Notes under the pieces: model-generated
Seen by the model: the letters and a program-made list of their open reading frames with translations, nothing else
Database searches by the model: none
What the model was told of the DNA's origin: nothing
Shown: positions 3,116 to 19,969 of the stretch, in pieces
Numbering within the stretch: position 1 is the stretch's first letter
Layout of the letters: each line of letters opens with the position of its first letter
Assembly (NCBI GenBank): GCA_040752395.1
Contig: JBFMHD010000021.1
Span: 1-20,034 of the forward strand
Source: JBFMHD01 sp040752395 [NCBI: Candidatus Hydrogenedentota bacterium]
GTDB taxonomy: Bacteria; JBFMHD01
Reading direction: 5' to 3'
DNA length: 20,034 nt
Program-made: the position numbers and the translations under genes

Positions 3116-3124
3116 ATTTCGTAT

Positions 3125-4552: not shown

Positions 4553-4564
4553 TGAACTATCTTC

Positions 4565-4593
4565 TGGACATAAATTTAACAAAATTGTATAAT
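4565..4593 (+). promoter_or_regulatory. Predicted promoter of the secretin gene (leaderless transcript)
   Basis: TGGACA (4565-4570) and TATAAT (4588-4593) are separated by exactly 17 bp. Position +1 would fall at about 4600, which is the A of the secretin ATG. No Shine-Dalgarno sequence precedes that ATG. A second TATAAT at 4594-4599 abuts the start codon. Both points suggest a leaderless mRNA. Confidence 0.5.
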
Positions 4594-4594
4594 T

Positions 4595-4623
4595 ATAATA
4601 TGAAAAAGATTTTATATTGTCTA
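4595..4623 (-). promoter_or_regulatory. Predicted promoter of the PilM-PilN operon, overlapping the divergent one
   Basis: On the minus strand TAGACA (4623-4618) and TATTAT (4600-4595) are 17 bp apart, each with one mismatch to consensus. The predicted start near 4588 leaves a leader of about 35 bases containing the AGAAGA ribosome-binding site. The -35 box lies inside the secretin signal-peptide codons. The predicted transcription start (4588) lies inside the secretin promoter's -10 box. Confidence 0.4.
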
Positions 4624-6330
4624 TTAATATTTAGCTGTTTTATATCTCTGGTATTTGCCGACCCTGACCTGTCGCCAAATATAACCCTGGATTTGAAAGA
4701 AGTGGATGCAAGAGACGTGTTCCGGGCAATAAGCACACAGAAAGAGTTGAACGTAGTTGTTGATGACAACGTTCAGGGTAAAGTGACACTTCATTTAAGT
4801 GACGCTACTGTAAAAGAAGCGTTTCAGGTCATACTTGAGCTTCTGAACGCAGAGATGGAAATAGAGGGGAACATATTAAAAATTAAACCAAAGGGAGAGG
4901 AGAAGATAGAGCCAGTAAAAAATATTGAGATAAAGTTGAGAGAAGATAATAAAATAGACGTAAATTTAAATAATGCTTCTGCTGAAGAAGTATTTAAGGA
5001 ATTATCTGATAAAACAGGAGAGAACATAGTTTTAAGTTCCGAGGTAACCGGCTCGGTTAAACTTGATTTAAAAGGCATAGAGTTCAACACTCTTTTAAAC
5101 GTGATAGCGGATCTGGTGTCTGCAAAGATAAAGAGAGAGGATAACATCTACAAAGTTATTCCCTATAGTAAAGAGGAGAAGAAGGAGTCAGAGTTCGACG
5201 TAGAGATAAAAGATGGGAGATTAAGTCTTAACGTGCAGGATATAGACATAAGTGAGCTTCTGAGAACCATAGCGGATAAATCCGGGTTTGATTTGATTCT
5301 GCTTGGTTCTGTGAAAGAAAAAGTGAACGTAAAACTGACTGATGTAGAACTGGATACTGCGCTCAATCTTATACTTCGCGGTACAAGGTTCGGGATAAGG
5401 ATAGAAGATAATCTTGTTACAATCGGAGAGAATCTGCCTGCTGCACCATCTGCTCCGGTTATTGGCCAGACATCAGTCATAAGATTGAGCTACATAAAAT
5501 CAGAAGAGATACCTTCGCTTTTACCACCTACAATTCCTGCACAGTCTCTTAAGGTTTTAAAGGAACAGAACTCTATAGCGTTTCGCGGTACTGACGAACA
5601 GATAAAAGAACTTGAAGAATTTGTGCATACCATAGACATAAAACCACCTGTGGTGATGCTTGATATGCTGATAGTGGATTATCTGGATAACGTGGACAAA
5701 AACATAAACTTTAGTTCTACGCTTGGAACCGGGGAGAACCAGATAACCGAGACATTGAGAGGCGACCAGGCCGGGTTTATAACCGCGAACGTGATAAGGT
5801 CTACGTGGAAAACGATTGATGACCAGTTTGCTATAACACTCCAGGCTTTGATAGACGAGAACAAAGCAGAGGTCAAGGCAGAACCGAGGATATCAACCGT
5901 AAGCGGTCAGGAAGCAAAGATACGCGTGGAGAACGAGGAATATTTCAGAGTGACCACAGGTAACGTTGAGACACCGTTAACACAGCTTGAAAAAGTTACT
6001 TCGGGAATATCGTTAACCATAACGCCTTACGTTGCTTCTGGTAATAACTCCATCACGGTAAAAATCAACGCTACTGTGAGCCAGCCTACAGGTACAACCG
6101 GGGACAATCTTCCTGCAATAAAAAGCCGGGAAGCTTCAACTCAACTTGTGGTAGATGATGGACAAACCATAGTTATCGGTGGTCTTCTTCAGTCAGTACA
6201 GTCCACGAGTGTGCAACGGTTCCCCATACTATCAAGCATACCCGTAGTCGGACTATTATTCAAGAACACCACAAAACAGGATAGGAAAAGTAACCTTGTT
6301 TTCTATATCACGCCTACTATAGTGAAGTAG
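4600..6330 (+). CDS. Secretin (PilQ/GspD family) with three tandem STN-like domains
   Basis: This 576-residue outer-membrane pore has a signal peptide (MKKILYCLLIFSCFISLVFA) with probable cleavage before DPD. Three tandem copies of an STN/N0-like fold follow, at about 27-96, 117-187 and 206-276. Each has a pattern like LDLKEVDARDVFRAIS, then a 'V.L.L..' strand, then an Ala/Leu-rich helix. A secretin N1-type domain spans about 290-350 (SVIRLSYIKSEEIPSLL). The C-terminal secretin gate/barrel domain spans about 405-575, with LVVDDGQTIVIGGLL and FPILSSIPVVGLLFKN as hallmark motifs. The C-terminus is complete (FYITPTIVK). The start at 4600 is chosen because the signal peptide begins there; an in-frame ATG 48 bases upstream falls inside the promoter. 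It is followed after 6 bp by a pilin-like gene. Canonical PilQ or GspD usually has one N0 domain, so the triplication is notable. Confidence 0.92.
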   Translation: MKKILYCLLIFSCFISLVFADPDLSPNITLDLKEVDARDVFRAISTQKELNVVVDDNVQGKVTLHLSDATVKEAFQVILELLNAEMEIEGNILKIKPKGEEKIEPVKNIEIKLREDNKIDVNLNNASAEEVFKELSDKTGENIVLSSEVTGSVKLDLKGIEFNTLLNVIADLVSAKIKREDNIYKVIPYSKEEKKESEFDVEIKDGRLSLNVQDIDISELLRTIADKSGFDLILLGSVKEKVNVKLTDVELDTALNLILRGTRFGIRIEDNLVTIGENLPAAPSAPVIGQTSVIRLSYIKSEEIPSLLPPTIPAQSLKVLKEQNSIAFRGTDEQIKELEEFVHTIDIKPPVVMLDMLIVDYLDNVDKNINFSSTLGTGENQITETLRGDQAGFITANVIRSTWKTIDDQFAITLQALIDENKAEVKAEPRISTVSGQEAKIRVENEEYFRVTTGNVETPLTQLEKVTSGISLTITPYVASGNNSITVKINATVSQPTGTTGDNLPAIKSREASTQLVVDDGQTIVIGGLLQSVQSTSVQRFPILSSIPVVGLLFKNTTKQDRKSNLVFYITPTIVK

Positions 6331-6336
6331 CCTCTT

Positions 6337-6852
6337 ATGAGAGAAATACGAAGTATGAGAGGAGTATCACTTGTAGAATTGCTTGTTACGATTGGAATAG
6401 TGGGGTGCGGAATCGTAATGATAATTAACGGCTACCATAGATATGTGAAAAATATCAACAATGTTGAGATACGCTTGCGCGCAGCTCAGGTGCTTGAGAA
6501 CATCAAAGAAGAAATAATGGTAAAAAAATATAAAGACAATTCTCCGAATATGGTGTTTGGTCCTGAGCCTGGAGAAATCCAGAAAATTAGAAGCACACTT
6601 AACGATATTGATGATTATAATGAGTTGTTTACTGAAGTGGTTGATTCCCACGGAGTACCGCCTGGTGGTTATGAAAACTATTTTATCCGGGTTGATGTAT
6701 ATAATTTTAACATAGAAGAAAATAAAGAAGTATCAAGGCTTGAAGATACGGGTACAAGAAAGATAGTGATACAGGTTTTGTATAAAGATAGGGTTATTAA
6801 CAAAGTTGAAATAATAAAAACAGATAGTGAGAAACCTTATGGAAATCACTAA
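6337..6852 (+). CDS. Type IV pilin-like/pseudopilin protein (GspI/PilV-like)
   Basis: This 171-residue protein has a type III prepilin leader of about nine residues (MREIRSMRG). The mature sequence begins VSLVELLVTIGIVGCGIVM, with Glu at position +5 of the mature protein as required for N-methylation and assembly. A soluble domain follows the hydrophobic helix. Prepilin peptidase would cleave after Gly9; the enzyme is not in this window. It starts 6 bp after the secretin stop and is probably co-transcribed with it. ATG 6337 is preferred; ATG 6355 would leave a leader of only three residues. Assignment to a particular pseudopilin (GspI versus PilV) is not possible from the sequence. Confidence 0.75.
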   Translation: MREIRSMRGVSLVELLVTIGIVGCGIVMIINGYHRYVKNINNVEIRLRAAQVLENIKEEIMVKKYKDNSPNMVFGPEPGEIQKIRSTLNDIDDYNELFTEVVDSHGVPPGGYENYFIRVDVYNFNIEENKEVSRLEDTGTRKIVIQVLYKDRVINKVEIIKTDSEKPYGNH

Positions 6853-6980
6853 ATACAAAATTCTAAATACTAAACGAACCCACATTTCAAATGACCAGAG
6901 ATTAAAATAATATGATTTAGAGACAAGAACGTTGCAGTTTGCTACAAACATTTTATTTCGGATTTCGAATTTATTATGTT
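6853..6980 (+). repeat. Spacer with 7-bp word array between two pilin-like genes
   Basis: After the stop codon come 7-bp steps AAATACA, AAATTCT, AAATACT. The right end carries TTTCGGATTTCGAATTTATT (6956-6975) immediately before the next start, again in 7-bp steps. Left A-rich and right T-rich words are partly complementary, so the spacer could fold. No ribosome-binding site is visible before ATG 6981. Confidence 0.5.
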
Positions 6981-7457
6981 ATGATTTCTAAAGACCATGG
7001 TTTTACATTAATAGAGATTCTCGTAGTCATAGCAATATTCAGTATAGTTGCTCTTATGCTATTCCAGTTGTTCAACTCCGCGGTAAGAGTAGTTACCAGA
7101 GTAAAGCAGGTTCTTATCGAGTTAGATAAGGTCGAACTGTTTGAGTATAAAATACGTGACGAGATTAGAAATTGTCTGGACATACTGTATAACGATGGAC
7201 GTGGCATAACGTTATGGGTACTGGATAAAAATAAGGATAAAATACCTAACTATGATGAGTTGAGAGCATACTACTGGGATGGTGATGAACAAGGTGTTCT
7301 TTACAAAATTGAGAACGGAATAAAAGAGACAGTTTTTGAGAACGTAAACTATGTTGAATGGAAAGTTGATACTTATGACAGAGCAACGTTAGTAGAATTA
7401 AAAATCAAACTACGGGATAAACATTACTGGATACTGGAAACAAACTATAAATTCTAA
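6981..7457 (+). CDS. Pseudopilin, GspJ-like
   Basis: This 158-residue protein has a canonical prepilin leader of seven residues (MISKDHG) followed by FTLIEILVVIAIFSIVALML: Phe at +1, Glu at +5, then the hydrophobic assembly helix. The soluble part contains LIELDKVELFEYKIRDEIRN and a GspJ-like beta region near the C-terminus. GspJ is a minor pseudopilin at the tip of the type II secretion pseudopilus. The start at 6981 gives the normal short leader; an upstream TTG (6939) would read through the word array and add a meaningless extension. The stop codon lies inside the first word of the next array (AAATTCTAAAT). The GspJ label is tentative; the pilin-like class is secure. Confidence 0.75.
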   Translation: MISKDHGFTLIEILVVIAIFSIVALMLFQLFNSAVRVVTRVKQVLIELDKVELFEYKIRDEIRNCLDILYNDGRGITLWVLDKNKDKIPNYDELRAYYWDGDEQGVLYKIENGIKETVFENVNYVEWKVDTYDRATLVELKIKLRDKHYWILETNYKF

Positions 7458-8779: not shown

Positions 8780-8813
8780 TTAAAGCCCCGTGTTACAAAA
8801 ACCGGGGCTTTAA
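8780..8813 (+). terminator. Rho-independent terminator in the convergent spacer
   Basis: TTAAAGCCCCG (8780-8790) pairs with CGGGGCTTTAA (8803-8813), an 11-bp stem with a 12-base loop. It is followed by AATTTTCTTTT-type sequence on the plus strand. It would end transcripts from the pilin-like genes. The stop codon of the convergent NfnL/GltA-like gene (8810-8812) lies inside the stem, so the hairpin also caps the minus-strand operon, though the T-run on that strand is weak. Confidence 0.75.
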
Positions 8814-10210
8814 TTTTCTTTTAAATATTCATCGATACTTCTTGCGGCAATCTTACCCTGACCCATCGCTAATATCACAGTCGCAGCACCACTTACTATA
8901 TCGCCACCTGCAAATACACCCTTCTTTGAGGTTGCCATTGTCTTTTCATCTACAACAATAGTACCCCATTTTGAGATTTCAAGTCCCGGGGTTGTTCTTG
9001 GGATAAGCGGATTTGGTTTGTTTCCGAGTGCCGGGATAACCGTATCAACATCAATTATAAACTCGCTGTCAGGAATTGTTATAGGTCTTCGTCTACCGCT
9101 CTCATCCTGCTCACCTAACTCCATACGATAACATTCTATTCCGATTACTCTACCCTGTTCATCACCCAATATTCTTTTAGGATTTGTTAAGAAATGAAAC
9201 ACAATACCCTCTTCCTCAGCATGGTGTATCTCTTCTATTCTTGCAGGCATCTCTTTTCTGCTACGCCTATATACAACGGTAGTTTTGGCACCACTTCTTA
9301 TAGCTGTTCTTGCAGAATCCATTGCGACATTTCCACCACCTACAACTACAGTTTTTTTACTCACAACAGCTGGTGTAGCATATTCTGGAAAAAGATACGA
9401 CTTCATAAGGTTCGAACGAGTAAGATATTCATTAGCAGAATATACTCCTATAAGATTCTCACCCGGGACACCAAGAAACATTGGTAACCCTGCACCTGTT
9501 CCGATAAAGATAGCATCAAAACCAGACTCAAGTAGCTCATCAATACTTGCTGTCATCCCTACAACAAAGTCTGTCCGTATCTTAACACCCATCATTGTGA
9601 GATATGATATTTCGCTTTTAACTATCTCTTTTGGTAACCTGAACTCAGGTATTCCGTAGCTAAGCACGCCACCTGGTTCGTGTAATGCCTCAAAAATTGT
9701 AACATCGTGTCCAAGTTTGATCAGGTCGCCTGCTACAGTTAATCCTGCAGGACCAGACCCAATAATTGCAACTTTTTTATTTGTCTGCTTTTTAATCTCA
9801 GGACACGTTATAACTCCGTACTCACGTTCATAATCAGCGGCAAACCGTTCAAGCCTGCCAATTGCGACAGGCTCGGTCTTTTTTGCTAATACACATTTTT
9901 CTTCACACTGTGTCTCCTGGGGACAGACCCTGCCTGTTGTTGCAGGTAACGAATTCTGTTCTTTTAGTTTATGAGCTGCTTCAATAAATTTTCCTTCTTC
10001 TATAAGCGAGATAAAACCCGGTATATCGATATTTACCGGGCATCCTTGTATGCACGCAGGTTTTTTACATTTAAGACAACGTTGAGCTTCCTTGATAGCT
10101 ATCTCTGGCGGAAATCCATAAGGTACCTCATTATAATTATGTCTTCTTTTTAACGGGTCTTGTTCTGGCATCTTCTGTCTTGGGATCGCCATTCTCTCTT
10201 TAGGATCCAT
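8810..10210 (-). CDS. gltA: NfnL/GltA-like NAD(P)-dependent oxidoreductase (large Nfn subunit)
   Basis: This 466-residue protein belongs to the homotetrameric glutamate-synthase small-subunit/NfnL/SudA family. An N-terminal Fe-S domain has Cys45, 48, 53, 57 and Cys96, 102, 106 (CLKCKKPACIQGCP; CPQETQCEEKC). The FAD-binding loop GSGPAG is at 151-156, the NADPH-binding loop GGGNVA at 291-296 with YRRSRKEMPA after it, and the C-terminal GVFAGGDIVSGAATV at 431-445. The length is that of full family members. No glutamate synthase large subunit is nearby. The preceding gene ends in an NfnS domain, and NfnS-NfnL is the usual gene order of electron-bifurcating NADH-dependent ferredoxin:NADP oxidoreductase. 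In that complex this subunit carries the bifurcating FAD and binds NADPH. The start at 10210 has AAGGGG seven to eight bases upstream; ATG 10192 (MAIPRQKMP) is the alternative and matches the common family start. Confidence 0.9.
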   Translation of the reverse strand: MDPKERMAIPRQKMPEQDPLKRRHNYNEVPYGFPPEIAIKEAQRCLKCKKPACIQGCPVNIDIPGFISLIEEGKFIEAAHKLKEQNSLPATTGRVCPQETQCEEKCVLAKKTEPVAIGRLERFAADYEREYGVITCPEIKKQTNKKVAIIGSGPAGLTVAGDLIKLGHDVTIFEALHEPGGVLSYGIPEFRLPKEIVKSEISYLTMMGVKIRTDFVVGMTASIDELLESGFDAIFIGTGAGLPMFLGVPGENLIGVYSANEYLTRSNLMKSYLFPEYATPAVVSKKTVVVGGGNVAMDSARTAIRSGAKTTVVYRRSRKEMPARIEEIHHAEEEGIVFHFLTNPKRILGDEQGRVIGIECYRMELGEQDESGRRRPITIPDSEFIIDVDTVIPALGNKPNPLIPRTTPGLEISKWGTIVVDEKTMATSKKGVFAGGDIVSGAATVILAMGQGKIAARSIDEYLKEN

Positions 10211-10324
10211 CTATTATCCCCTTTGACAAGTTAAAAGTTAAAAGTAAAGAAAGCGAAAATATACACTTCCTTGCCGTATCTTTCAATCTTTTAATCTTTG
10301 TGCCTTTGTGCCTCTTGCTTCTAA
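10211..10324. repeat. Spacer of short word repeats between the fusion gene and NfnL
   Basis: AAGTTAA is repeated at a 7-bp step (10228, 10235) followed by AAGTAAA. Further along, TTTGTGCC occurs twice at an 8-bp step (10297, 10305) followed by TCTTGCTTCT. The same TTTGTGCC/TCTGTGCC pair occurs at 19971-19986. This 114-bp array interrupts an otherwise tightly packed operon. The AAGGGG ribosome-binding site of NfnL lies in its last bases. Confidence 0.5.
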
Positions 10325-12778
10325 TTAATGACATATTGAATGATCCTGGGGTAATGATTTAATCTCTTCTAAATTATAAGCGTTTAATCTCTGCATAAGC
10401 TCTAACCAGTTAATTTTGTGGCCATCAAGAAATGTGCCATCAACACAAACAAATTTTGTCTGGTCACCTACGGATACCCTGCAAGCGCCACACATACCTG
10501 TGCCATCCATCATTATCGAATTAAGAGCGGTCATAGTTGGGATACCTAAATTTTTAGTAGACTCACTTACTAACATCATCATAAAAGCACAACCTACTAT
10601 AAACACCTGATCTATGGTTTCACCTTGTTCTGCAAGTAATGTAATAGCCTCGCCTACCCCTCCTTTTATTCCATAAGAACCATCCTTTGTTGCGATTAAT
10701 AGCTTATCTGAATATTCAGCTATCTTATCTTCCCGGTATAAAAGATAATGTGTAGAGGCTTCAATTATAGATATCACTCTATTTCCTGCTTTTTTCAATT
10801 CACGGCAAATCGGTAAAATCGCGCCAACACCAAAACAGCCACCACCACATACAACTGTGCCGTATCGCTTAATCGAAACAGGGTTACCAAGTGGTCCTAC
10901 AAAATGTGCTAATGTATCACCTGCGGAAAGCATTACCATCTCTCTACTTGATCTCCCCACCTCCTGCACAATCAAAGTTACAGTCCCATGCTCGACGTTC
11001 CAATCAGCTATTGTATATGGTATTCTTTCTGATTTATCATTAACCATCGCTATCACGAACTGGCCTGGTTTACATTTTTTTGCGATATCCGGTGCTTGTA
11101 TAGTAATCGTATGAAAATTAGGGACTATCTCTTGTTTTTCTACAATTTTGAACTCTGTCTTTTTAGTTATGTCTTCTTGCCTCTCAATTTTCATAATAGT
11201 TCTTAACGCACCAAGGATATCTGCCAAATAATGACCTCGATAATACCTCGGCAAATCTTTTATGTCTTCAAGTGGCGAAGACAGAGGCATCTCCTGTCTT
11301 CTGTCTTCTAAGGTGGCAGTGCCACCAGCCAAATTTCTATATGAAGGCTTTTGACGCCATATAGTTGAGTTAAAATTCTGCGCAAATTGCACAGATCTTA
11401 CGATATAAGAATCTAATTGAGCTCCCATCTCTTTAGCGATATCACAAATTATTCTGCTTACTGTGTTGCTATCAGGTGGTGGAACCAGCGCTTCACCCGT
11501 TTCCTGTGGTAAAGTGAGTGCAAATAGAACATCAGCGGATTCACTCATAAAAGAAGGGAATACATCAAGTGCAATAATTACCTCTAAATTTTTTAATGAA
11601 TCTTTATCTATATAATCTCCGGTAGTTATAACAGCTTTTGTTTCCTGGTTGAGTTTTATTTTATCATCTTGTTTTTCTACGACATGGCAGTTTTCCGAGT
11701 TCATAACGTTTTTAGTAAAATTTTTCAGTATATCAATCTCTTCGATTAAAGCGTTGTAATATATAATAGTAGCGAATTGGTTGCCTTTATAATTAAGTAA
11801 TTTAGCTGCTGCGTGTTTTACAGCATCAGTCCAGGGGACTTTTCGTATACCATCCTGAAGTTTAATATAATTAGATGTTATACGTTTAGGCGATTCAAAT
11901 AATTGTGGCAGAATAAATCGTGCTCCTATGCATATCTTGTGTTCTTGTTTGAAACTCTTTGCCATAGCACCGATTACTTTATTATCTTTTATACGGAGAT
12001 AGAAATCGCAATTAATCGAACAGAGGTCACAAATCGTCTCTTTTATTTTATCTTCTTTGCCATACCATTTTGCATATCTATCAGAGAGCGCACCTGTGGT
12101 GCATATATCAACACAAGCTCCACAGAACAAACAACCTGTTTCAGTGTGGTCTTGATAAAAAGCTGTGCCGATACGAGCCGCTCTCCCTCTGTTAATAAAA
12201 GCGATAAATGGTTTTTTATGCAAATTCTGACATACTCTGACGCACCTCCCACAGAGTATGCAAAGATTATAATCTCTATCCATAAATGGGTCTCTTCTTT
12301 CAAGCGGGATGTTGTTGTAAATTACAGGTAATCCGATATCATCAATATTATACTCTTTTACAAGTTTTTTAAGCTCACATATATCAGTATTACTGCAGGT
12401 ATTACATCTTATAGTCTTTCCTGTTTTAGTTGGCTTTGGTCGATACTTTTCACAGAGTTCTCGATGCAAGCAGACTATACAGGGACTTGTATGATTACTT
12501 AACAGGAGCTTAATTATATTCTTTCTGTAGCTTATAATTTCAGGTGTATTTGTTTTTATAGACATCCCATTTTTAACAAAAGTATTACAGGACGTTTGAA
12601 ACCCTTTCATTCCCTCGATCTCAACAATGCATATTCTACAGCCGCCAAATGGTTCTAATTCTTCGTGGTTGCATAAGTAGGGGATAATAATCCCGGCTCG
12701 TTTAGCTGCTTCAATAACTGTCTCATCAGGGTTTGCTTCAACTATTTTACCATCAATAGTTAAGATAATTTTATCCAT
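10325..12778 (-). CDS. NuoG/HndD-like iron-sulfur protein fused to Nfn small subunit (NfnS)
   Basis: This is an 817-residue fusion. N-terminal half: [2Fe-2S] ferredoxin domain with Cys36, 47, 50, 64; His96 then Cys100, 103, 109 (NuoG His-Cys cluster region) with a second C-x2-C-x5-C at 125, 128, 134; two [4Fe-4S] sets at Cys173, 176, 179, 183 and 216, 219, 222, 226; and a molybdopterin-oxidoreductase-type Fe-S motif at Cys250, 253, 257, 283. About 290-540 is a shortened, Mo-cofactor-free-looking domain (ADVLFALTLPQETGEA at 415-430). C-terminal part (about 541-817) is an NfnS/PyrK-like module: FAD motif ERIPYTIAD (584-592), nucleotide-binding VVCGGGCFGVGA (642-653), and [2Fe-2S] motif MDGTGMCGAC with Asp758, Cys763, 766, 778. 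No H-cluster motifs occur. The gene starts 3 bp after NuoF and precedes NfnL. Inference: it wires the NADH-oxidising NuoEF part to the Nfn part in one complex. Confidence 0.85.
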   Translation of the reverse strand: MDKIILTIDGKIVEANPDETVIEAAKRAGIIIPYLCNHEELEPFGGCRICIVEIEGMKGFQTSCNTFVKNGMSIKTNTPEIISYRKNIIKLLLSNHTSPCIVCLHRELCEKYRPKPTKTGKTIRCNTCSNTDICELKKLVKEYNIDDIGLPVIYNNIPLERRDPFMDRDYNLCILCGRCVRVCQNLHKKPFIAFINRGRAARIGTAFYQDHTETGCLFCGACVDICTTGALSDRYAKWYGKEDKIKETICDLCSINCDFYLRIKDNKVIGAMAKSFKQEHKICIGARFILPQLFESPKRITSNYIKLQDGIRKVPWTDAVKHAAAKLLNYKGNQFATIIYYNALIEEIDILKNFTKNVMNSENCHVVEKQDDKIKLNQETKAVITTGDYIDKDSLKNLEVIIALDVFPSFMSESADVLFALTLPQETGEALVPPPDSNTVSRIICDIAKEMGAQLDSYIVRSVQFAQNFNSTIWRQKPSYRNLAGGTATLEDRRQEMPLSSPLEDIKDLPRYYRGHYLADILGALRTIMKIERQEDITKKTEFKIVEKQEIVPNFHTITIQAPDIAKKCKPGQFVIAMVNDKSERIPYTIADWNVEHGTVTLIVQEVGRSSREMVMLSAGDTLAHFVGPLGNPVSIKRYGTVVCGGGCFGVGAILPICRELKKAGNRVISIIEASTHYLLYREDKIAEYSDKLLIATKDGSYGIKGGVGEAITLLAEQGETIDQVFIVGCAFMMMLVSESTKNLGIPTMTALNSIMMDGTGMCGACRVSVGDQTKFVCVDGTFLDGHKINWLELMQRLNAYNLEEIKSLPQDHSICH

Positions 12779-12781
12779 AAA

Positions 12782-14656
12782 TCAATTTTTACAGACTCCC
12801 TTTTTAACAGCAGAAACCTTTGTGGGACAAACATCAAGACATTGACCACATCTTATGCATTTTTTAGAATCTATACTGTGTACCTGCTTCAATTCGCCAG
12901 TAATTGCATTTACAGGACAGATTTTAAAACATAGATTGCAACCAGTACATTTATCAATATCAATAAAATATTCAATCAAGTCTTTACAAACTAAAGCCTG
13001 GCAGTGTTTTTCTTTTATATGCGCTTCATATTCGTTTCTAAAATATTTTATAGTAGAGAGCACGGGGTTTGGCAGGGTCTGACCAAGACCACATAAACTG
13101 CATAATCTTATAGTCTCAGATAATTCCTCAAGTTTATCAATATAAGATAACGAGGCATTACCTTGAGTTATCGCAGTTAAATATTGAAGTAGATGTACCG
13201 AACCGATCCTGCAGGGAATACATTTGCCACAGGATTCATTGTTTGTGAATTCTAAAAAGTATCGCGCTATATCAACTATACAGGTATCTTCATCTAAAAC
13301 AATCATACCACCAGAACCCATAATAGAACCGGCTTTTGTTAGTTCTTCATAATCGACTTTCAAATCCATAAGCTCAGCAGGTATGCAGCCGCCTGAAGGG
13401 CCACCTGTCTGAACAGCTTTTAATCTTTTGTTATTTGGGATGCCACCACCTATATCATATATTACTTCTTTAAGCGTTATGCCCATAGGGACTTCAATAA
13501 GCCCTGTATGCTTAACTTTTCCTGCAAGCGCAAAGACTTTTGTACCTTTGCTCTTTGTAGTGCCTAACTGAGCGAACGTATCCGCTCCTTTTTGTATGAT
13601 CCATGGAACATTTGCGAAGGTCTCGACATTATTTATAACAGTCGGTTTTTTGTGTAATCCACAGACAGCAGGGAACGGTGGTCTCGATGACGGCATTCCG
13701 CGTCTGCCCTCAATCGAAGCGATTAATGCGGTCTCTTCACCACAGACAAATGCTCCAGCACCCTCCTTAATCTCAATCTCAAAATCAAACCCGCTCCCCA
13801 TTATATCCCTCCCTAAAAACCCCAGATTATATGCTTGCTCTATAGCGATTTTAAGTCTTTTAACAGCAAGCGGATACTCTGCCCTTACATATATATATCC
13901 GTTTCTCGTACCGACTGCATAAGCAGCAATAATCATACCTTCAAGTACAGAATGTGGGTCACTCTCAAGGACAGCTCGATCCATAAACGCTCCCGGGTCT
14001 CCCTCATCTGCATTACATATTATGTATTTAATATCGCTCTCAGTATTTCTTGCGATCTCCCATTTTACGCCAGTGTGGAAGCCGGCACCACCTCGTCCTC
14101 TCAACATAGAATCCTTTACCTCTTTAATGACATCAGCTGGTGTTATGGTAAATGCTTTTAATAAAGCAGAATAACCATCTCTTGCTATGTAATGGTTTAT
14201 ATTTACCGGGTCTATGATACCAGCGTTCCTTAATACTATTCGCTGCTGTTTGTTTAACATTGGCAACTCAGTAATTTGTTTTATGCCTGGTATTTTCATC
14301 TCGCCGGTCGTGCAAAGTGCGAGGTCAATTCTTGGATTATTTTTTAAAATAACGTCATCTATAATTTGTGGTAGAATTTTTTCGTTAACGTTCCCGTACA
14401 TTATGCGTCTTTTATCTGGTAAACATATCTCTACAATGGGTTCTGCATAACACATTCCGATACAACCTACTTCGTAAATCTCACATTGTATTTTTTTAGT
14501 TTTAATCTCTTTTTTAAAAGAATCACAGACTTTTAATGCACCCGAAGCTATACCGCAAGTTGCAGCCCCTATTAACATTCGTATCTGTTTGCTATTATTG
14601 AAGTTTTCCCATTCTATCTCTGCTTTTCTTTTTAACTCTTTGAATCTCTCAATCAT
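12782..14656 (-). CDS. nuoF: NuoF/HndC/HydB-like NADH-binding flavoprotein with C-terminal 2x[4Fe-4S] domain
   Basis: This 624-residue protein has an N-terminal thioredoxin-like domain (Cys34, 44, 65, 69; GCIGMC). The core is NuoF: FMN loop RGRGGAGFHTGVKW (186-199), NADEGDPGAFMDR (215-227), and the NADH-binding AGAFVCGEETALIASIEGRR (300-319). The [4Fe-4S] ligands are Cys476, 479, 482 (ESCGKCIPCRIG) and Cys522. A C-terminal double ferredoxin carries Cys570, 573, 576, 580 and 600, 603, 606, 610. This domain order is that of HndC and HydB, the NAD(H)-binding subunit of soluble bifurcating complexes, rather than of membrane complex I NuoF. It is expected to exchange electrons between NADH (via FMN) and Fe-S partners in the cytoplasm. 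It starts 2 bp after the NuoE-like gene and ends 3 bp before the fusion gene, so translation is probably coupled. Confidence 0.93.
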   Translation of the reverse strand: MIERFKELKRKAEIEWENFNNSKQIRMLIGAATCGIASGALKVCDSFKKEIKTKKIQCEIYEVGCIGMCYAEPIVEICLPDKRRIMYGNVNEKILPQIIDDVILKNNPRIDLALCTTGEMKIPGIKQITELPMLNKQQRIVLRNAGIIDPVNINHYIARDGYSALLKAFTITPADVIKEVKDSMLRGRGGAGFHTGVKWEIARNTESDIKYIICNADEGDPGAFMDRAVLESDPHSVLEGMIIAAYAVGTRNGYIYVRAEYPLAVKRLKIAIEQAYNLGFLGRDIMGSGFDFEIEIKEGAGAFVCGEETALIASIEGRRGMPSSRPPFPAVCGLHKKPTVINNVETFANVPWIIQKGADTFAQLGTTKSKGTKVFALAGKVKHTGLIEVPMGITLKEVIYDIGGGIPNNKRLKAVQTGGPSGGCIPAELMDLKVDYEELTKAGSIMGSGGMIVLDEDTCIVDIARYFLEFTNNESCGKCIPCRIGSVHLLQYLTAITQGNASLSYIDKLEELSETIRLCSLCGLGQTLPNPVLSTIKYFRNEYEAHIKEKHCQALVCKDLIEYFIDIDKCTGCNLCFKICPVNAITGELKQVHSIDSKKCIRCGQCLDVCPTKVSAVKKGVCKN

Positions 14657-14658
14657 AC

Positions 14659-15099
14659 CTATATCTCATCCAGCAGTTTTCTAACCATTTGTGGCGTCAT
14701 TCGACCATAAACATTATTGTCTATAACGACAACAGGTGCAAGAGCACAGGAGCCAAAACAAGCCACTCTTAAAAGACTGAACTTGTAATCTTTAGTAGTC
14801 TCTCCTGATTTTATGCCGAGATAATTACATACATCTTCATAGATACGTTGACCACCGCGAACATGACAGGCAGTACCAAGACAGATATTAATGATATGGT
14901 CTCCTGGTTTAGTGAACCTGAATTGAGCAAAAAACGTCGCAACACCGTATATATCATTTTCCGAGACATCAATATATTTTGCAATCTCTTTAAGTGATTC
15001 TCTTGATATATATCCCTGGTTTTTTTGTATTTCCTGAAGAAGCGGTATCAAGCTATCTCGTTCTGGTTTATATTTTTTAAATATCTCTTGAAAATTCAT
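14659..15099 (-). CDS. nuoE: NuoE/HndA-like [2Fe-2S] thioredoxin-fold subunit
   Basis: This 146-residue protein has an N-terminal helical bundle (about 1-60; DSLIPLLQEIQKNQGYIS) and a thioredoxin-like [2Fe-2S] domain with ligands Cys73, Cys78, Cys114 and Cys118 (CLGTACHVRGG; CFGSCALAPVVV). This is the diagnostic C-x4-C ... C-x3-C pattern of NuoE/HndA/HydC. The ATG at 15099 gives a family-typical N-terminus. A GTG at 15162 would add 21 residues (starting MLIREPKGFDG) that do not look like the family and read through a hairpin, so it is less likely. GGA about seven bases before 15099 is a weak ribosome-binding site. The gene lies 109 bp after the PFOR stop and 2 bp before NuoF, forming the first gene of the NuoE-NuoF-fusion-NfnL series. 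Confidence 0.9.
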   Translation of the reverse strand: MNFQEIFKKYKPERDSLIPLLQEIQKNQGYISRESLKEIAKYIDVSENDIYGVATFFAQFRFTKPGDHIINICLGTACHVRGGQRIYEDVCNYLGIKSGETTKDYKFSLLRVACFGSCALAPVVVIDNNVYGRMTPQMVRKLLDEI

Positions 15100-15146
15100 T
15101 TTTGATCCATCAACCTGACCCTGGTCCAATCCGTCAAACCCTTTAG

Positions 15147-15160
15147 GCTCACGGATGAGC
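15147..15160. other. Intercistronic hairpin between PFOR and NuoE
   Basis: GCTCA (15147-15151) and TGAGC (15156-15160) form a perfect five-pair stem with a four-base loop. On the message it lies between the PFOR stop and the NuoE start. It has no T-run, so it is more likely an RNA-processing or stability feature than a terminator. Confidence 0.3.
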
Positions 15161-15208
15161 ACGGGACATTTTTTGCAAAGACTGCGAAATTGTTAACCCT
15201 GTGCCGCT

Positions 15209-18200
15209 CTATTTAGAATAATCCATTTGAGCTAAACGTTTATAATGTGTGTAACGTTCAAGCATAGCTTTTTCTGCTTTTTCATAAAGCTCTTCAGCTC
15301 TATCTGGAAATTGTTTCTTTAATGAACTGAACCTTGTCTCGGCCATTAAAAATTCCTTGAATTTACCATTCGGCTCCTTTGATTCGAAAATAAACGGATT
15401 TTTACCTTCTTTAGCGAGCAAAGGGTTATAACGGTACACAGGCCAGTACCCGCATTCTACAGCAAGCCTCTCTTCCTCAATCGACTTTGCCATATCAAGC
15501 CCATGATTTATACATGGGCAATAACAAATTATAAGTGATGGCCCCTTATACGATTCAGCTTCAATTAAAGCATTCAGATACTGCTGTTTGTTATAACCTA
15601 TTGCACAACTTGCAACATAGACATATCCATAAGATAGAGCCATCATGCCTAAATCTTTTTTTCTTACATCTTTACCAGCCATAGCAAAGCGTGCAACCGC
15701 AGAAAGCTGTGTGGCTTTAGATGCCTGACCACCTGTATTCGAATATACCTCTGTATCAAGAACAAATAGATTAATATTAACACCTGTAGAAATAATATGA
15801 TCAAGTCCACCATACCCGATGTCATAAGCCCAGCCATCTCCACCAACACACCAGATGCTCCTATCAACAAAATAATCTTTTAATTCAATAACCCTTTTTA
15901 TGGCCTCTTTATTTTCGGTGCTTGCCTGATTATATGCTTTATCAAGAAGGATACAGGTTCTATCAGCTGCTTCCATAGCTTCACTATCAACTTTATCCCA
16001 TAACTCTTTATTTTTATTTAACGCCAGGCTAAGCTCGTGCGGGATTTTTAATTCAAGTAGTCTGTTTATTTTATTAAGTAGCTGTTTACGATTAGCGTTT
16101 ACAGCAAGCCGCATACCAAAACCATACTCTGCATTGTCTTCAAATAAAGAATTAGCCCATGTAGGTCCCCTACCAGCTTTTGTTACACAATATGGTATTA
16201 TGGGGAAAGTACCGCCGTAAATAGAAGAACACCCTGTAGCATTTGCTATCATCAAACGTTCACCAAATAACTGGGTAATTAATCTCAAATACGGTGTTTC
16301 ACCGCAGCCACCACAAGCGCCATGAAACTCAAGTAATGGTTTTAAAAACTGGCTGCCTTTAAGTTGAGAAGGTTTGGTTCCGTCAAGGATGTTATCAGGC
16401 AGATTTTCAAAAAATTCTGAATTTTCACGTTCGAGATTGGCACGTTCGGCTTCTATCGGTGTTATAACAAGCGCATCTTTGGGACAGGTGTTAACACAAC
16501 TCCCACAACCTACACAATCTTCTATATATACTTGGATCCGGTATTGTAAGTTGCGCTCATTCTTTGTTGTGGACTTAAGAGTTTTAAATGTAGGGGGTGC
16601 ATTTTTTAGATCGTCAGGTAGAATCTGTTTTGAACGGATTACTGAATGTGAACATACATACGAACATTGATTACACTGGATACATTTTTCAGGAACCCAG
16701 TGAGGTACAAACGGTGCTATCCCGCGTTTCTCAAGTTTGCTTGTTGCAGTAGGGATCGCACCATCAACTGGCATCTTTGAAACAGGTATCTCATCACCTT
16801 TTAGTCTCATTATCGGTTCTATCACGCTTTTTTCGAAGTCCGAGGCATTATCAGGAATAAGTTTTATAACAGGAGCTGATTTAGAAACTTTATCAGGGAT
16901 TGGTATCTCTAAAAGTGCTTCAGCGGTTTTATCAACACAGTCCCAGTTCATCTGCACTACTTTGTCGCCTTTGGCTCCATAAGTCTTCTTTATCGCATCC
17001 TTAAGCAATTTAATGGCTTTTTCTTCAGAAAGCACATTTGAGATTTTAAAGAACGCAGCCTGCATCACAGAATTGATTCTGCCACCCAACCCAACTTCTT
17101 TTGCAATCTTTAAAGCATCGATATTGTAAAACTTTATTTTTTTGGTTATAATTGTTTTCTGCATATCTTCTGTCAGATGCTCAAAAACCTCATCTTTAGA
17201 CCAGGGCGAGTTTAATAAAAATACACCTCCTTCTTTGATCCCTTCTAATATATCATATCTTCCAATATATGCCGGGTTATGAAGCGCAATGAACTCGAAT
17301 GTCGTTGGGAGATAAGATGATTGTATTTTTGATTTACCAAACCTTAAAAACGATATTGTAATACCACCTGATTTCTTTGAATCATAAACAAAATATCCCT
17401 GGGCATTCATATCAGTATTATCACCGATAATTTTAATTGAGTTTTTACAAGAACCGACAGTGCCATCAGACCCATAGCCCCAGAATTTACACCGCACAAC
17501 GCCTTCAGGCTCGGTCTCGATATGTTTATGAATTTTTATTGATGTATGCGTAACATCATCAGTGATACCAACAGTGAAATTATGAAAAGCCTCGTTATCA
17601 AGATGGTCATAAACAGCTTGCACCATTGACGGCGTAAACTCTTTTGAAGATAAACCATATCTGCCACCGATAATTTTTATATCACTGTCTTTTAACGCAG
17701 CTATAACATCAAGATATAACGGTTCACCGATAGCACCTGGCTCTTTTGTCCTATCAAGTACAGCTATTTTTTTTACGGTTTTGGGGATAGAGTCGATAAA
17801 ATCAGGGACTGAGAAAGGTCGATATAACCGAACCTTTATAGCACCCACTTTTTCTCCTTTTTTGTTTAAATAATTCACTGTCTCTTCAATCGTGTCGCAT
17901 GAAGAACACATCGCAATAATTATTTTTGTAGCTTGCGGGTCACCAACATAGTCAAATAATTTATAAGAACGCCCGATTTTCTCTGCTATAAGCCCCATAT
18001 ATTTTTTAACAATCTGAGGGAGCCGATCATAATATCTATTAACTGTTTCTCTTCCTTGAAAATATACGTCCGGGTTCTGAGCACCAACCTTGATCATAGG
18101 TCTATTAGGACTTAATGCTCTCTCTCTAAACTCTTGCACAAATTTCATATCAAGCAGCTCTGACATAGTCTCATATGGTATCATCTCAACTTTCTGAACC

Positions 18201-18736
18201 TCATGAGACGTCCGAAAACCATCAAAGAAGTTCAAGAAAGGGACTCGCGATTCTAATGTTGCAAGATGCGAGACTAAAGCTAAATCCATAACTTCCTGTA
18301 TTGAAGAAGCTGCCATTAAAGCAAAACCTGTATTCCTAACACCCATAACATCAGAATGGTCTCCAAAAATAGAGAGGGATTGACATGCAAGCGAACGCGC
18401 AGAGACATGAAAAACCACTGGCAAGAGCTCACCCGCTATTTTATGCATATTAGGTATCATTAAAAGTAGTCCTTGAGCCGCTGTAAAAGTAGAACACATA
18501 GCCCCGGCTGTTAAAACTCCATGTACAGCACCAGCTGCACCACCCTCAGACTGCATCTCTATTACATCAACTATCTCTCCAAACAGATTCTTTCTACCTT
18601 TCACAGCCCACTCATCAACCAGCTCTCCCATTGGTGAAGATGGTGTAATAGGATAGATTGCAGCCACTTCGCTGAAAGCATAAGCCACATACGAAGCGGA
18701 TTCATTCCCGTCTATCGCTTGTTTTATAGTGTTCAT
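15209..18736 (-). CDS. nifJ: Pyruvate:ferredoxin (flavodoxin) oxidoreductase, single-chain
   Basis: This 1175-residue single-chain PFOR oxidatively decarboxylates pyruvate to acetyl-CoA and CO2 and reduces ferredoxin. The N-terminal pyruvate-binding domain has YPITPSSPMGE at about 28-38. The gamma domain begins near FWGYGSDGTVGSCK (about 418-431). Two [4Fe-4S] clusters are at Cys685, 688, 691, 695 and Cys741, 744, 747, 751. The C-terminal thiamine-diphosphate domain has GACGGCGETPY (Cys808, 811), GCSSIYGG (Cys836), GGDGWAYDIGYGG (about 965-977) and YSNTGGQASKATQ. The length matches full-size family members. ATG 18736 is preceded by AGGAGG with a ten-base spacer; longer in-frame extensions read through the repeat. 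Its ribosome-binding site is part of direct repeat A. It lies upstream of the NuoE/F/NfnS/NfnL genes in the same direction, supplying reduced ferredoxin to them. Confidence 0.97.
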   Translation of the reverse strand: MNTIKQAIDGNESASYVAYAFSEVAAIYPITPSSPMGELVDEWAVKGRKNLFGEIVDVIEMQSEGGAAGAVHGVLTAGAMCSTFTAAQGLLLMIPNMHKIAGELLPVVFHVSARSLACQSLSIFGDHSDVMGVRNTGFALMAASSIQEVMDLALVSHLATLESRVPFLNFFDGFRTSHEVQKVEMIPYETMSELLDMKFVQEFRERALSPNRPMIKVGAQNPDVYFQGRETVNRYYDRLPQIVKKYMGLIAEKIGRSYKLFDYVGDPQATKIIIAMCSSCDTIEETVNYLNKKGEKVGAIKVRLYRPFSVPDFIDSIPKTVKKIAVLDRTKEPGAIGEPLYLDVIAALKDSDIKIIGGRYGLSSKEFTPSMVQAVYDHLDNEAFHNFTVGITDDVTHTSIKIHKHIETEPEGVVRCKFWGYGSDGTVGSCKNSIKIIGDNTDMNAQGYFVYDSKKSGGITISFLRFGKSKIQSSYLPTTFEFIALHNPAYIGRYDILEGIKEGGVFLLNSPWSKDEVFEHLTEDMQKTIITKKIKFYNIDALKIAKEVGLGGRINSVMQAAFFKISNVLSEEKAIKLLKDAIKKTYGAKGDKVVQMNWDCVDKTAEALLEIPIPDKVSKSAPVIKLIPDNASDFEKSVIEPIMRLKGDEIPVSKMPVDGAIPTATSKLEKRGIAPFVPHWVPEKCIQCNQCSYVCSHSVIRSKQILPDDLKNAPPTFKTLKSTTKNERNLQYRIQVYIEDCVGCGSCVNTCPKDALVITPIEAERANLERENSEFFENLPDNILDGTKPSQLKGSQFLKPLLEFHGACGGCGETPYLRLITQLFGERLMIANATGCSSIYGGTFPIIPYCVTKAGRGPTWANSLFEDNAEYGFGMRLAVNANRKQLLNKINRLLELKIPHELSLALNKNKELWDKVDSEAMEAADRTCILLDKAYNQASTENKEAIKRVIELKDYFVDRSIWCVGGDGWAYDIGYGGLDHIISTGVNINLFVLDTEVYSNTGGQASKATQLSAVARFAMAGKDVRKKDLGMMALSYGYVYVASCAIGYNKQQYLNALIEAESYKGPSLIICYCPCINHGLDMAKSIEEERLAVECGYWPVYRYNPLLAKEGKNPFIFESKEPNGKFKEFLMAETRFSSLKKQFPDRAEELYEKAEKAMLERYTHYKRLAQMDYSK

Positions 18737-18746
18737 GGACACGATA

Positions 18747-18752
18747 CCTCCT
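18747..18752 (-). promoter_or_regulatory. Strong ribosome-binding site of PFOR at the repeat edge
   Basis: AGGAGG on the minus strand, ten bases before ATG 18736. The boundary of the ~200-bp direct repeat (18749) falls inside this site, so the repeat supplies most of it. Confidence 0.75.
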
Positions 18753-18967
18753 CTGAAAAACATTGTAATTATAATAATATCAAGTAGAAGCAAGAAGCAA
18801 GATAACGGAAGAAGTGAGAAGTATCAGGACAGGCTACAGGCTACAGGCTACGGACTACAGCCGGCTGGAGCCAAAAGCCCAAAGCCTGCTGAAAAGTCTT
18901 GAGTCTTGAGTCTTGAGTCTCGAGTCCTGTTTTGACTCACGACTTGCGACTCACGACTCTTTTCATA
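18749..18967. repeat. Direct repeat A (219 bp) made of 7-bp word arrays
   Basis: This is a close match to repeat B (19772-19969) over its whole length. Internal 7-bp arrays are AGGCTAC x3, GTCTTGA x3 plus a variant GTCTCGA, AAGAAGC-type words, AAAAGCC-type words, and GACTCAC/GACTTGC alternations. Repeat B lacks one AGGCTAC and two GTCTTGA-type units; that alone accounts for the 21-bp difference in length. The left end carries the PFOR ribosome-binding site. No gene is contained. No confident -35/-10 pair was found, although AT-rich TATAAT-like sequence occurs near 18767-18778. Confidence 0.85.
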
Positions 18968-19053: not shown

Positions 19054-19458
19054 TTATGCAAGATTAATCTTATTCAATACAAACTTTTTTACTTTCTTAG
19101 CCATTTCAAGAGCTTCTCTGGCATCTTCTACCCCTGGTTCAAGCAAGATATCTGGATAACGAACTTCTACAGCATAATCGGTTAGGTTATCTGCTTCTTT
19201 CAACTCTTCTTTAAAAGAAGGATCTATAGTAGCACATAATTCTAATAAATCTACTATTTTATGAGTCTTGGTAAAATAAATTTGATAATAGATTAAAAAA
19301 GCCTTTAAATACTTCTCTACAACCTGTTGACAATGAAAACATACTGCTTCTGTAACAGGATCTTCAAAAGACAATTCTCTCTCAGCAGTCAAAAAATCTT
19401 TATCCGCCTTTTTTATCCATTTATTAACCAAATCTTTAATAATTTCATCTTGATTCAT
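19054..19458 (-). CDS. HEPN-domain protein paired with the adjacent nucleotidyltransferase
   Basis: This 134-residue all-helical protein has HEPN (PF05168-type) hallmarks: FHCQQVVEKYLKAFL (41-55), KTHKIVDLLELC (64-75) and VRYPD (99-103). HEPN proteins next to minimal nucleotidyltransferases form two-gene modules, many of which act as toxin-antitoxin pairs with HEPN as an RNase. The RNase motif R-x4-6-H is not visible here: His42, 66 and others lack an Arg at the right distance. The activity of this member is therefore uncertain. ATG 19458 is chosen because it gives the normal HEPN start; an upstream in-frame extension to 19524 would overlap the neighbour widely. It overlaps the end of the nucleotidyltransferase gene by 14 bp, which suggests translational coupling. 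The pair sits between the two direct repeats. Confidence 0.85.
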   Translation of the reverse strand: MNQDEIIKDLVNKWIKKADKDFLTAERELSFEDPVTEAVCFHCQQVVEKYLKAFLIYYQIYFTKTHKIVDLLELCATIDPSFKEELKEADNLTDYAVEVRYPDILLEPGVEDAREALEMAKKVKKFVLNKINLA

Positions 19459-19762
19459 AGATAACTTTCCCAAATTTATTTGCAGGATAGATGATGGTTC
19501 CAATAATATTCTTGTATGTTTCAAATTCTTTAACGGTTTTTACAATTACATCTACAGGAACTTTCAAATCAGCCAGTATCTTTCTGACATTACGATTCTG
19601 TATATGAGCTGGCAAATCACTATCCTTAATAATCAAGAGATCCAAATCGCTATCTTTCTGTGGTGTACCGGTAGCATAAGAACCAAAAAGAATTATTTTT
19701 TGAGGCTTAAAACTTTCTACAATTTTTCTTTTAATCTCATCTATTTGTTCTTGAGTTATCAT
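19445..19762 (-). CDS. Minimal nucleotidyltransferase (MNT) domain protein
   Basis: This 105-residue protein has a complete minimal nucleotidyltransferase active site: GS (27-28), ten residues, then D39-x-D41 (ILFGSYATGTPQKDSDLDLL), with the third Asp at 71 (VPVDVIV). In characterised pairs the MntA-type partner AMPylates its HEPN toxin to neutralise it; by family logic this protein would be the antitoxin. ATG 19762 is chosen because AGAGGA lies nine bases upstream and the protein then starts in normal family register. The longer frame to 19816 is translated repeat B, and the PFOR upstream frame shares the same bogus extension. The gene is first in the module and overlaps the HEPN start. Confidence 0.88.
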   Translation of the reverse strand: MITQEQIDEIKRKIVESFKPQKIILFGSYATGTPQKDSDLDLLIIKDSDLPAHIQNRNVRKILADLKVPVDVIVKTVKEFETYKNIIGTIIYPANKFGKVIYESR

Positions 19763-19771
19763 TAGGAGTCT

Positions 19772-19969
19772 TCCTCTGAAAAACGTTGTAACTCTAATAA
19801 TATCAAGTAGAAGCAAGAGGCAAGATAACAGAAGAAGTGAGAGGTGTCAGGACGGGCTACAGGCTACGGACTACAGCCGGCTGGAGCCAAAAGCCAAAAG
19901 CCTGCTGAAAAGTCTTGAGTCTTGAGTCCTGTTTTGACTCACGACTTGCGACTTTTGACTCTTTTCATA
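19772..19969. repeat. Direct repeat B (198 bp), leader of the nucleotidyltransferase gene
   Basis: This is the second copy of repeat A, in the same orientation, with AGGCTAC x2 and GTCTTGA x2. Scattered single-base changes are present (for example AAGAGGC for AAGAAGC). Its left end provides AGAGGA, the ribosome-binding site of the nucleotidyltransferase gene, just as repeat A does for PFOR. No gene is contained. Confidence 0.85.

What the first reader, a model, noticed from the sequence alone, without database searches (positions are those of the whole stretch)
8810..15099. NuoEF-type diaphorase joined to an Nfn transhydrogenase through a NuoG-NfnS fusion
Seen: four adjacent minus-strand genes encode NuoE, NuoF with a double ferredoxin tail, an 817-residue protein with a NuoG/HndD-like Fe-S half and a complete NfnS half, and NfnL. 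Known: HndABCD/HydABC-type complexes couple NADH, ferredoxin and a third acceptor; NfnSL bifurcates between NADPH, NADH and ferredoxin. Inference: this is one soluble complex that moves electrons among NADH, NADPH and ferredoxin. The fusion replaces the separate NADH-binding small subunit of Nfn and substitutes for a hydrogenase or formate dehydrogenase catalytic subunit. I do not recognise this combination as a described enzyme.
Basis: partly seen in the sequence, partly recalled or inferred. Interest (0 to 1): 0.72.

Follow-up and report, generated by a model that had tools for sequence, protein, structure and literature searches.

The report
NuoEFG–Nfn hybrid NADPH enzyme
Four neighbouring bacterial genes encode what looks like one enzyme joining two known electron-splitting machines, probably to make NADPH from NADH and ferredoxin; related gene sets, with the two middle parts fused or separate, occur in other bacterial genomes.

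Summary
Minus-strand genes encode NuoE, NuoF with a double-ferredoxin tail, an 817-residue NuoG–NfnS fusion, and NfnL. The fusion is not a frame error: four more fusions in other assemblies read through in one frame, two in the same four-gene order, one with NuoF fused to GltD, one cut by its contig end. Unfused operons also exist. The family has two signatures. NuoG has a doubled Cys motif: 18 of 18 family members, 0 of 14 others. The NAD-site loops of NfnS are rebuilt: 18 of 18 NuoG-linked, 0 of 38 not linked. The linked NfnL keep the Glu of true Nfn (18 of 18), which 8 of 8 GltD domains fused to NuoG or NuoF lack. NuoF keeps the HydBC-type bifurcation ligands. Best reading: one soluble transhydrogenase among NADH, ferredoxin and NADP(H), with NfnS as internal relay rather than NAD site, perhaps with two bifurcation sites. 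The reaction is that of Nfn and Stn: a new variant of a known kind. Seven paper searches found no description; two papers mention nfn genes beside fdh.

The parts
14659..15162 (-). NuoE/BfuC/HydC-like subunit with one [2Fe-2S] (Cys 94, 99, 135, 139); the ATG at 15099 is an alternative start
12782..14656 (-). NuoF/BfuB/HydB-like subunit: FMN/NADH domain, B1 [4Fe-4S] (Cys 476, 479, 482, 522, assigned by pattern), B2 ligands (Cys459, Thr497, His546, Cys552, Cys557), C-terminal double [4Fe-4S] ferredoxin
   Evidence: B2 ligand list from PMC8880783
10325..12778 (-). NuoG-NfnS fusion, 817 aa
11174..12778 (-). NuoG-like half (residues 1-535): [2Fe-2S], His/Cys N5 site, double ferredoxin, N7-like site, degenerate molybdopterin-type domain without a Pfam match
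   Evidence: Pfam series
12377..12493 (-). doubled Cys motif Hx3Cx2Cx5C-x15-Cx2Cx5C (residues 96-134), a family signature
10328..11173 (-). NfnS half (residues 536-817): FAD motif ERIPYT, [2Fe-2S] DGTGMCGAC...C (Asp758, Cys763, 766, 778)
   Evidence: fold match to 5jca_S
10811..10855 (-). rebuilt nucleotide loop VVCGGGCFGVGAILP (residues 642-656; Gly to Cys at 648, Val/Ile/Leu to Phe at 649)
10589..10591 (-). Cys730, a Pro in all 24 unlinked NfnS
8810..10210 (-). NfnL: bifurcating-type FAD subunit, 7 Cys + Glu121 for two [4Fe-4S], Arg191 at the FAD N5 position
15209..18793 (-). Pyruvate:ferredoxin oxidoreductase, 46 bases upstream on the same strand: a possible ferredoxin source, not part of the conserved unit
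   Evidence: PFOR of G299 lies on another contig

Best explanation
The four proteins form one soluble complex that exchanges electrons among NADH, ferredoxin and NADP(H), most likely in the direction of NADPH formation. NuoE/NuoF is a HydBC/Bfu-type core: NADH at FMN, ferredoxin at the C-terminal clusters. The NuoG half is an iron-sulfur wire whose former formate-dehydrogenase-like domain is dead. The NfnS half docks NfnL onto that wire. Its FAD and Asp-ligated [2Fe-2S] act as an internal relay, because its own NAD site has been rebuilt. NfnL holds the NADP(H)-binding FAD and its own ferredoxin branch. Shown: gene content, conserved order, motifs, phylogeny. Inferred: assembly into one complex, relay role, direction, and whether one or both flavin sites split electrons.
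For: Same gene set in the same order with different neighbours in L035 and L066, and in five-gene unfused form in L067, L070, L075, L076, L124, L126 and L127. Perfect association of rebuilt NfnS with a NuoG neighbour: 11 of 11 linked against 0 of 24 unlinked, then 7 of 7 against 0 of 14 on freshly fetched loci. Linked NfnS form one clade, 100/99, and 98/95 with the motif columns removed. NuoF of seven such operons form one clade (95/93) apart from the Stn-like clade (99/99). Linked NfnL keep Glu121 (= PfNfnL E126) in 18 of 18, whereas five NuoG-GltD and three NuoF-GltD proteins have Lys or Gln there. B2 ligands are retained in NuoF. The MopB match falls from 288 bits (L068) to 30 (L035) to none (window) and the region is missing in L028.
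Against: No biochemistry. The structure model has pTM 0.44 and mostly low pLDDT (block means 35-73) over residues 91-300, the Fe-S region, so no cofactor distance could be judged. All 11 linked NfnS of the tree are one clade, so the perfect association may be a single evolutionary event; the fresh loci were picked by score, not at random. Arg191 is shared by the GltD domains of Stn-like proteins too, so it does not by itself mark bifurcation. L128 and L068 carry NuoF-GltD beside the complex, giving another possible NADP(H) entry. If the relay delivers electrons at NAD potential, the retained ferredoxin arm of NuoF has no obvious use in the oxidising direction.
Confidence: 0.66

Rival explanations
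1. It works like Stn: only the NuoEF core bifurcates and NfnSL merely passes NADPH electrons to NuoG, the L-FAD having lost bifurcation.
For: StnC, a GltD fused with NuoG, is reported as non-bifurcating (PMC10482914). The bifurcating core alone suffices to couple the three carriers. The N5 Arg is kept in Stn-like GltD domains as well, so its presence here proves nothing.
Against: NfnL keeps the Glu ligand and the RVCPQE motif of Nfn, which the Stn-like GltD domains examined lack. NfnS with its Asp-ligated [2Fe-2S] would be superfluous.
Confidence: 0.27
2. Two enzymes: an ordinary Nfn and a separate NuoEFG diaphorase that share an operon and, here, a tether.
For: Nfn genes beside fdhA-nuoE-nuoF were presented as separate complexes in PMC6349859 (passages).
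Against: Among the loci examined only NuoG-linked NfnS have rebuilt nucleotide loops, in fused and unfused operons; G068, G767, G787 and G823 also carry another, canonical NfnS or NfnSL.
Confidence: 0.1
3. The rebuilt NfnS pocket, with two new invariant Cys (648, 730), binds another substrate such as a thiol/disulfide, making this a four-substrate enzyme.
For: Cys648, Glu673 and Cys730 are invariant in 11 of 11 linked and absent from 24 of 24 others. NfnII of P. furiosus is a precedent for an Nfn with a changed NADH domain and unknown acceptor (PMC6405883 passages).
Against: No other substrate was suggested by the neighbours I looked for; NuoG is next to the rebuilt NfnS in every case.
Confidence: 0.12
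4. It is a formate dehydrogenase complex coupled to Nfn.
For: L068 has a 944-aa NuoG with full Molybdopterin and Molydop_binding domains and a Cys-His at the site recalled as catalytic; L141 has a 939-aa NuoG, not scanned with Pfam.
Against: The window has no molybdopterin Pfam match at E 0.001 and L028 lacks the region. It may be the ancestor, not the present function.
Confidence: 0.04

Closest known systems
Stn / Nfn-Bfu transhydrogenase (StnABC of Sporomusa ovata; Thermococcus sibiricus Nfn-Bfu)
   Same: NuoE/NuoF bifurcating core, NuoG wire, NADP(H)-binding GltD-type FAD domain; expected reaction NADH + reduced ferredoxin + NADP+
   Different: In Stn the GltD domain is within the NuoG chain, uses Lys at the proximal cluster and has no NfnA partner ('there is no NfnA homologue in Stn', PMC10482914). 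Here NfnL is a separate Glu-type subunit and NfnS is fused to the NuoG C-terminus.
NfnSL (NfnAB)
   Same: Complete NfnL; NfnS fold (target-normalised TM-score 0.91 to 5jca_S), FAD and Asp-ligated [2Fe-2S] motifs
   Different: NfnS nucleotide loops rebuilt; joined to NuoG and encoded with NuoEF
Bfu family, Types 1-4 (Schut et al. 2022, PMC9304861)
   Same: BfuBC-like core feeding a third reaction through BfuA
   Different: The classification section describes no NfnS-containing member; its supplement was not readable here
fdhA-nuoEF next to nfn in Margulisbacteria/Saganbacteria (PMC6349859) and fdhF2 next to nfnB in Seep-SRB1g (PMC10553843)
   Same: Perhaps related gene neighbourhoods; the second paper predicts a bifurcating complex
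   Different: No fusion, no rebuilt NfnS site and no NuoEFG-NfnSL complex in the passages seen
Benzoyl-CoA reductase Bam-Bfu
   Same: Precedent for two bifurcating modules in one complex (BfuABC plus HdrA; PMC9304861)
   Different: Other second module and substrate

Membership tests
Bfu (HydBC-type bifurcating core) | B1-B4 clusters in BfuB and C1 in BfuC | tested here: met
   Ligands aligned to AmHydB: Cys459, Thr497 (semi-conserved Cys/Thr), His546, Cys552, Cys557; eight Cys in the C-terminal ferredoxin; NuoE Cx4C and Cx3C
Bfu (HydBC-type bifurcating core) | B5 N-terminal [2Fe-2S] of BfuB | tested here: inconclusive
   Cys34, Cys65 and Cys69 present, the Cx4C partner is missing, Cys44 lies nearby. 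StnB also lacks two of the four Cys and still bifurcates (PMC7483475; PMC10482914)
Bfu (HydBC-type bifurcating core) | Coupled bifurcation with NADH and ferredoxin | not testable with these tools
   Needs assay
Stn / Nfn-Bfu | GltD domain within the NuoG chain, Lys at the proximal cluster, no NfnS | tested here: not met
   No GltD match in the fusion; NfnL separate with Glu; NfnS present
Nfn | NfnL with Glu-ligated proximal cluster and Arg at FAD N5 | tested here: met
   Glu121 = E126 and Arg191 = R201 of P. furiosus NfnL
Nfn | NfnS with FAD motif ERxPxT and [2Fe-2S] motif DGTGMCGxCRx10CV | tested here: met
   motif from PMC6405883 passages
Nfn | NfnS NAD(H) site of the common type (Gly-rich loop, Gly673-type position, GP) | tested here: not met
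   GC[FY]G, E, GC in the linked set; the functional meaning is inferred
Formate dehydrogenase | Molybdopterin and Molydop_binding domains | tested here: not met
   No Pfam match in the window fusion
[FeFe]-hydrogenase HydABC | H-cluster domain | tested here: not met
   No such Pfam match; NCBIfam hydrogenase models match only N-terminal Fe-S stretches; the chain continues into NfnS

The most novel reading that the evidence does not exclude
A tandem bifurcating machine: the FMN/B2/C1 site of the HydBC core and the Glu/Arg-type L-FAD of NfnL both work, wired in series through NuoG and an NfnS that has given up NAD to become an internal relay. Run in the NADPH-forming direction it would consume about 1 NADH and 6 reduced ferredoxins per 4 NADPH and could push NADP(H) to about -445 mV, against about -390 mV for Nfn or Stn. 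This is hand arithmetic from the E' values in PMC9304861, Table 1.
Probability: 0.33. Interest if true: 0.82.

Novelty: new variant of a known kind. Interest (0 to 1): 0.62.

Why it matters
Two different electron-bifurcating modules, normally alternatives for the same reaction, seem to be joined in one enzyme. It would be a third architecture for ferredoxin-dependent transhydrogenase, and a family in which the NAD site of NfnS appears to have been exchanged for an iron-sulfur wire. That bears on two open points: what NfnS can use instead of NAD+ (compare the unresolved acceptor of P. furiosus NfnII), and whether two bifurcation sites can work in series. The gene series from intact formate-dehydrogenase-like NuoG to truncated fused NuoG is also a readable record of modular enzyme evolution.

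Tried and rejected
Frame error: rejected by four further fusions. PFOR as part of the unit: rejected; in G299 it is on another contig and no PFOR match lies in L035 or L066. Stn membership: rejected. Formate dehydrogenase: rejected for the window. Organism: unresolved; no genome is held and PFOR is only 50-54% identical to its best matches in the order of G299 (25 of 35 genomes with a match). The genome-contig scan with the single fusion sequence gave 8 loci, none with the fusion. Plasmid search: no record covering 80% of the query. Phyla of G002 (17 genomes) and G005 (54 genomes): at E up to 1e-60 no listed match covered both halves. Structure prediction confirmed the NfnS fold only. The score cut on profile A3 is not a clean test: L130 (395 bits) is canonical and unlinked, L141 (361 bits) is rebuilt and linked. 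Alignment A1 seemed to place NuoG-only rows on NfnS and was replaced by A2. Left out of the association counts: NfnS known only from short flanks (for instance L009, L012-L021, L030-L034, L048-L065; motifs shown), several of which were later refetched with longer flanks.
Full report
Observation. The window holds four adjacent minus-strand genes as described: NuoE, NuoF, an 817-residue fusion and NfnL. NuoE to NuoF and NuoF to the fusion are separated by 2 and 3 bases, the fusion to NfnL by 114 bases, and PFOR stops 46 bases upstream of the NuoE GTG. Pfam and NCBIfam support the assignments. In the PDB the NfnS half is nearest to P. furiosus NfnS (5jca_S, E 1e-76), NfnL to T. maritima and P. 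furiosus NfnL, and NuoF to chains named NfnB, NADH dehydrogenase, NiFe hydrogenase subunit B and HoxF/HydB. The identity of chain 8oh5_C with StnC is inferred from its length of 1172 residues, which matches the paper.

Is the fusion real? A scan of genome contigs with the single sequence found 8 loci with NuoG relatives and no fusion. Five of them (L001, L002, L003, L005, L007) encode a NuoG-GltD chain behind NuoF (cut at the contig end in L005), the Stn-like arrangement. Whole-genome searches then found true fusions. G299 has the complete NuoE-NuoF-fusion-NfnL set between an Exo_endo_phos and a Glyco_transf_9 gene. G068 has the fusion and NfnL on a 4.5-kb contig, with the fusion cut at the contig end; such a short contig could be misbinned. 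In the phylum holding the genome of L008 (record titled Desulfobacterales), G546 and G774 carry fusions of 841 and 843 aa: at least 2 of the 395 genomes, whose match list was also capped. L066 (G546) has the same four-gene order; in L128 (G774) NuoF is itself fused to GltD. The fused NfnS of the window, G068, G299 and G546 form one clade (100/98); G774 came later and is not in the tree.

The wider family. In the second phylum most relatives found are unfused: NuoE-NuoF-NuoG-NfnS-NfnL in L067, L070, L075, L076, L124, L126, L127 and, with NfnL broken in two frames, L125. L071 and L069 are cut by contig ends (no NuoF seen in either); L129 has NuoF at the far end. At least 14 of 395 genomes have a NuoG-linked NfnS (13 read from the top matches plus G466); weaker matches were not read. 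NuoF of seven operons (window, L035, L066, L067, L070, L075, L076) form a clade (95/93) separate from the NuoF of the Stn-like loci L001, L002, L003 and L007 (99/99).

First signature, NfnS. NfnS without a NuoG neighbour have a Gly-rich loop ([GA]GGxG), a Gly at position 673 and GP at 730; NuoG-linked NfnS have GC[YF]G, Glu and GC. The split was 11 of 11 linked (window included) against 0 of 24 unlinked. I then fetched 18 new loci: 7 of 7 linked against 0 of 14 unlinked; three of those 14 are NfnS-NfnL chains on the same stretch as a linked operon but more than 6 kb from its NuoG. Some flanks were short, so 'unlinked' means no NuoG in the stretch fetched. Ten columns separate the two sets completely; Cys648, Glu673 and Cys730 are invariant in the linked set and Gly, Gly, Pro in the other. 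Linked NfnS are one clade even with the motif columns removed (98/95), so this may be one event, and the samples include near-copies. The [2Fe-2S] ligands are kept. That these loops hold the nicotinamide nucleotide is recalled from the ferredoxin-reductase fold, not shown here.

Second signature, NuoG. The motif Hx3Cx2Cx5C-x15-Cx2Cx5C occurs in 11 of 11 family NuoG proteins and 0 of 14 other NuoG-like proteins (L001 has a similar but differently spaced Cys set), and in 7 of 7 fresh ones. It may bind an additional cluster; that is a guess.

NfnL. Glu121 aligns with E126 of P. furiosus NfnL, the proximal-cluster ligand whose change to Cys uncouples the branches (PMC9503767 passages), and Arg191 with R201. 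In StnC that Glu is a Lys and the FAD is reported not to bifurcate (PMC10482914). A recount over all fetched loci gives Glu in 18 of 18 linked NfnL (window included) and Lys or Gln in five of five NuoG-GltD and three of three NuoF-GltD proteins. The Arg is present in both kinds, so only the Glu separates them.

NuoF and NuoE. The five B2 ligand positions of the A. mobile HydB (PMC8880783 passages) are Cys459, Thr497, His546, Cys552 and Cys557 here; B1, B3, B4 and the NuoE cluster have their Cys. The N-terminal B5 site is incomplete, as in StnB.

Decay of the formate-dehydrogenase domain. PF00384 scores 288 bits in L068 (which also has PF01568 and a Cys-His at the site I recall as catalytic), 147 in L067, 96 in the truncated L071, 79 in L070, 63 in L069, 60 in L066, 30 in L035, none in the window; L028 lacks the region. 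L068 branches first among the linked NfnS (the other ten 96/86, midpoint-rooted). The simplest story is that NfnSL was first coupled to a formate dehydrogenase through NuoG, NfnS lost NAD use, NuoEF took over, the formate site decayed, and NuoG and NfnS fused. This order is inference.

Mechanism. The likeliest working model is NADH and reduced ferredoxin entering at NuoEF, electrons passing through NuoG to the NfnS FAD and [2Fe-2S], meeting an electron from ferredoxin at the L-FAD of NfnL, and reducing NADP+. Whether the L-FAD bifurcates here, giving two sites in series, is open (I give 0.33). PFOR next door would supply reduced ferredoxin. The structure model of the fusion (pTM 0.44, mean pLDDT 69.6) confirms the NfnS fold (TM-score 0.91, normalised on 5jca_S) but says nothing on cofactor distances.

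What is known. Searches found Stn, Nfn and the Bfu family, and two reports of nfn genes beside fdh (PMC6349859 passages; PMC10553843 passages). The listings, sections and passages seen describe no NuoG-NfnS fusion, rebuilt NfnS or NuoEFG-NfnSL complex. Supplements and subscription papers were out of reach, so the supplementary clade table of PMC9304861 could list such operons.

Noticed in passing
window 19054-19816 (-): HEPN-domain protein next to a nucleotidyltransferase (MNT-like) gene, the usual pairing of a HEPN/MNT toxin-antitoxin system (the pairing is recalled).
   Followed up: no
window 2543-7457: Type IV pilus genes on both strands: PilO and PilN (-), a PilQ-like secretin and a prepilin-type N-methylation motif (+).
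   Followed up: no
L128 10110-13283, L068 530-3679, L047 55-3240: NuoF fused to a Lys-type GltD domain in place of the ferredoxin tail, next to a NuoE gene; in L128 it sits in the same operon as a NuoG-NfnS fusion and NfnL, so that complex would have two different NADP(H)-type flavin domains.
   Followed up: partly
L069 337-1446, L041 3319-4182, L042 491-1459: NuoE fused behind a response-regulator receiver domain, a possible direct signalling input to the enzyme.
   Followed up: partly
L124, L125, L127: A canonical single-chain NfnS-NfnL lies on the same contig stretch as the NuoEFG-NfnSL operon, so one genome keeps both kinds.
   Followed up: no
L068 6361-9192 and L141 934-3750: NuoG of formate-dehydrogenase size (944 and 939 aa) next to rebuilt NfnS and NfnL; L068 has full molybdopterin domains (L141 not scanned): a possible formate-linked Nfn.
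   Followed up: partly
L028 (G068 C12): Fusion on a 4.5-kb contig whose NuoG lacks the molybdopterin-type region; the genome also has another NfnS-NfnL (L036). The contig may be misbinned.
   Followed up: partly
L087 3442-6213: A 924-aa protein with a Lys-type GltD-like domain 1.3 kb from a canonical NfnS; not identified further.
   Followed up: no
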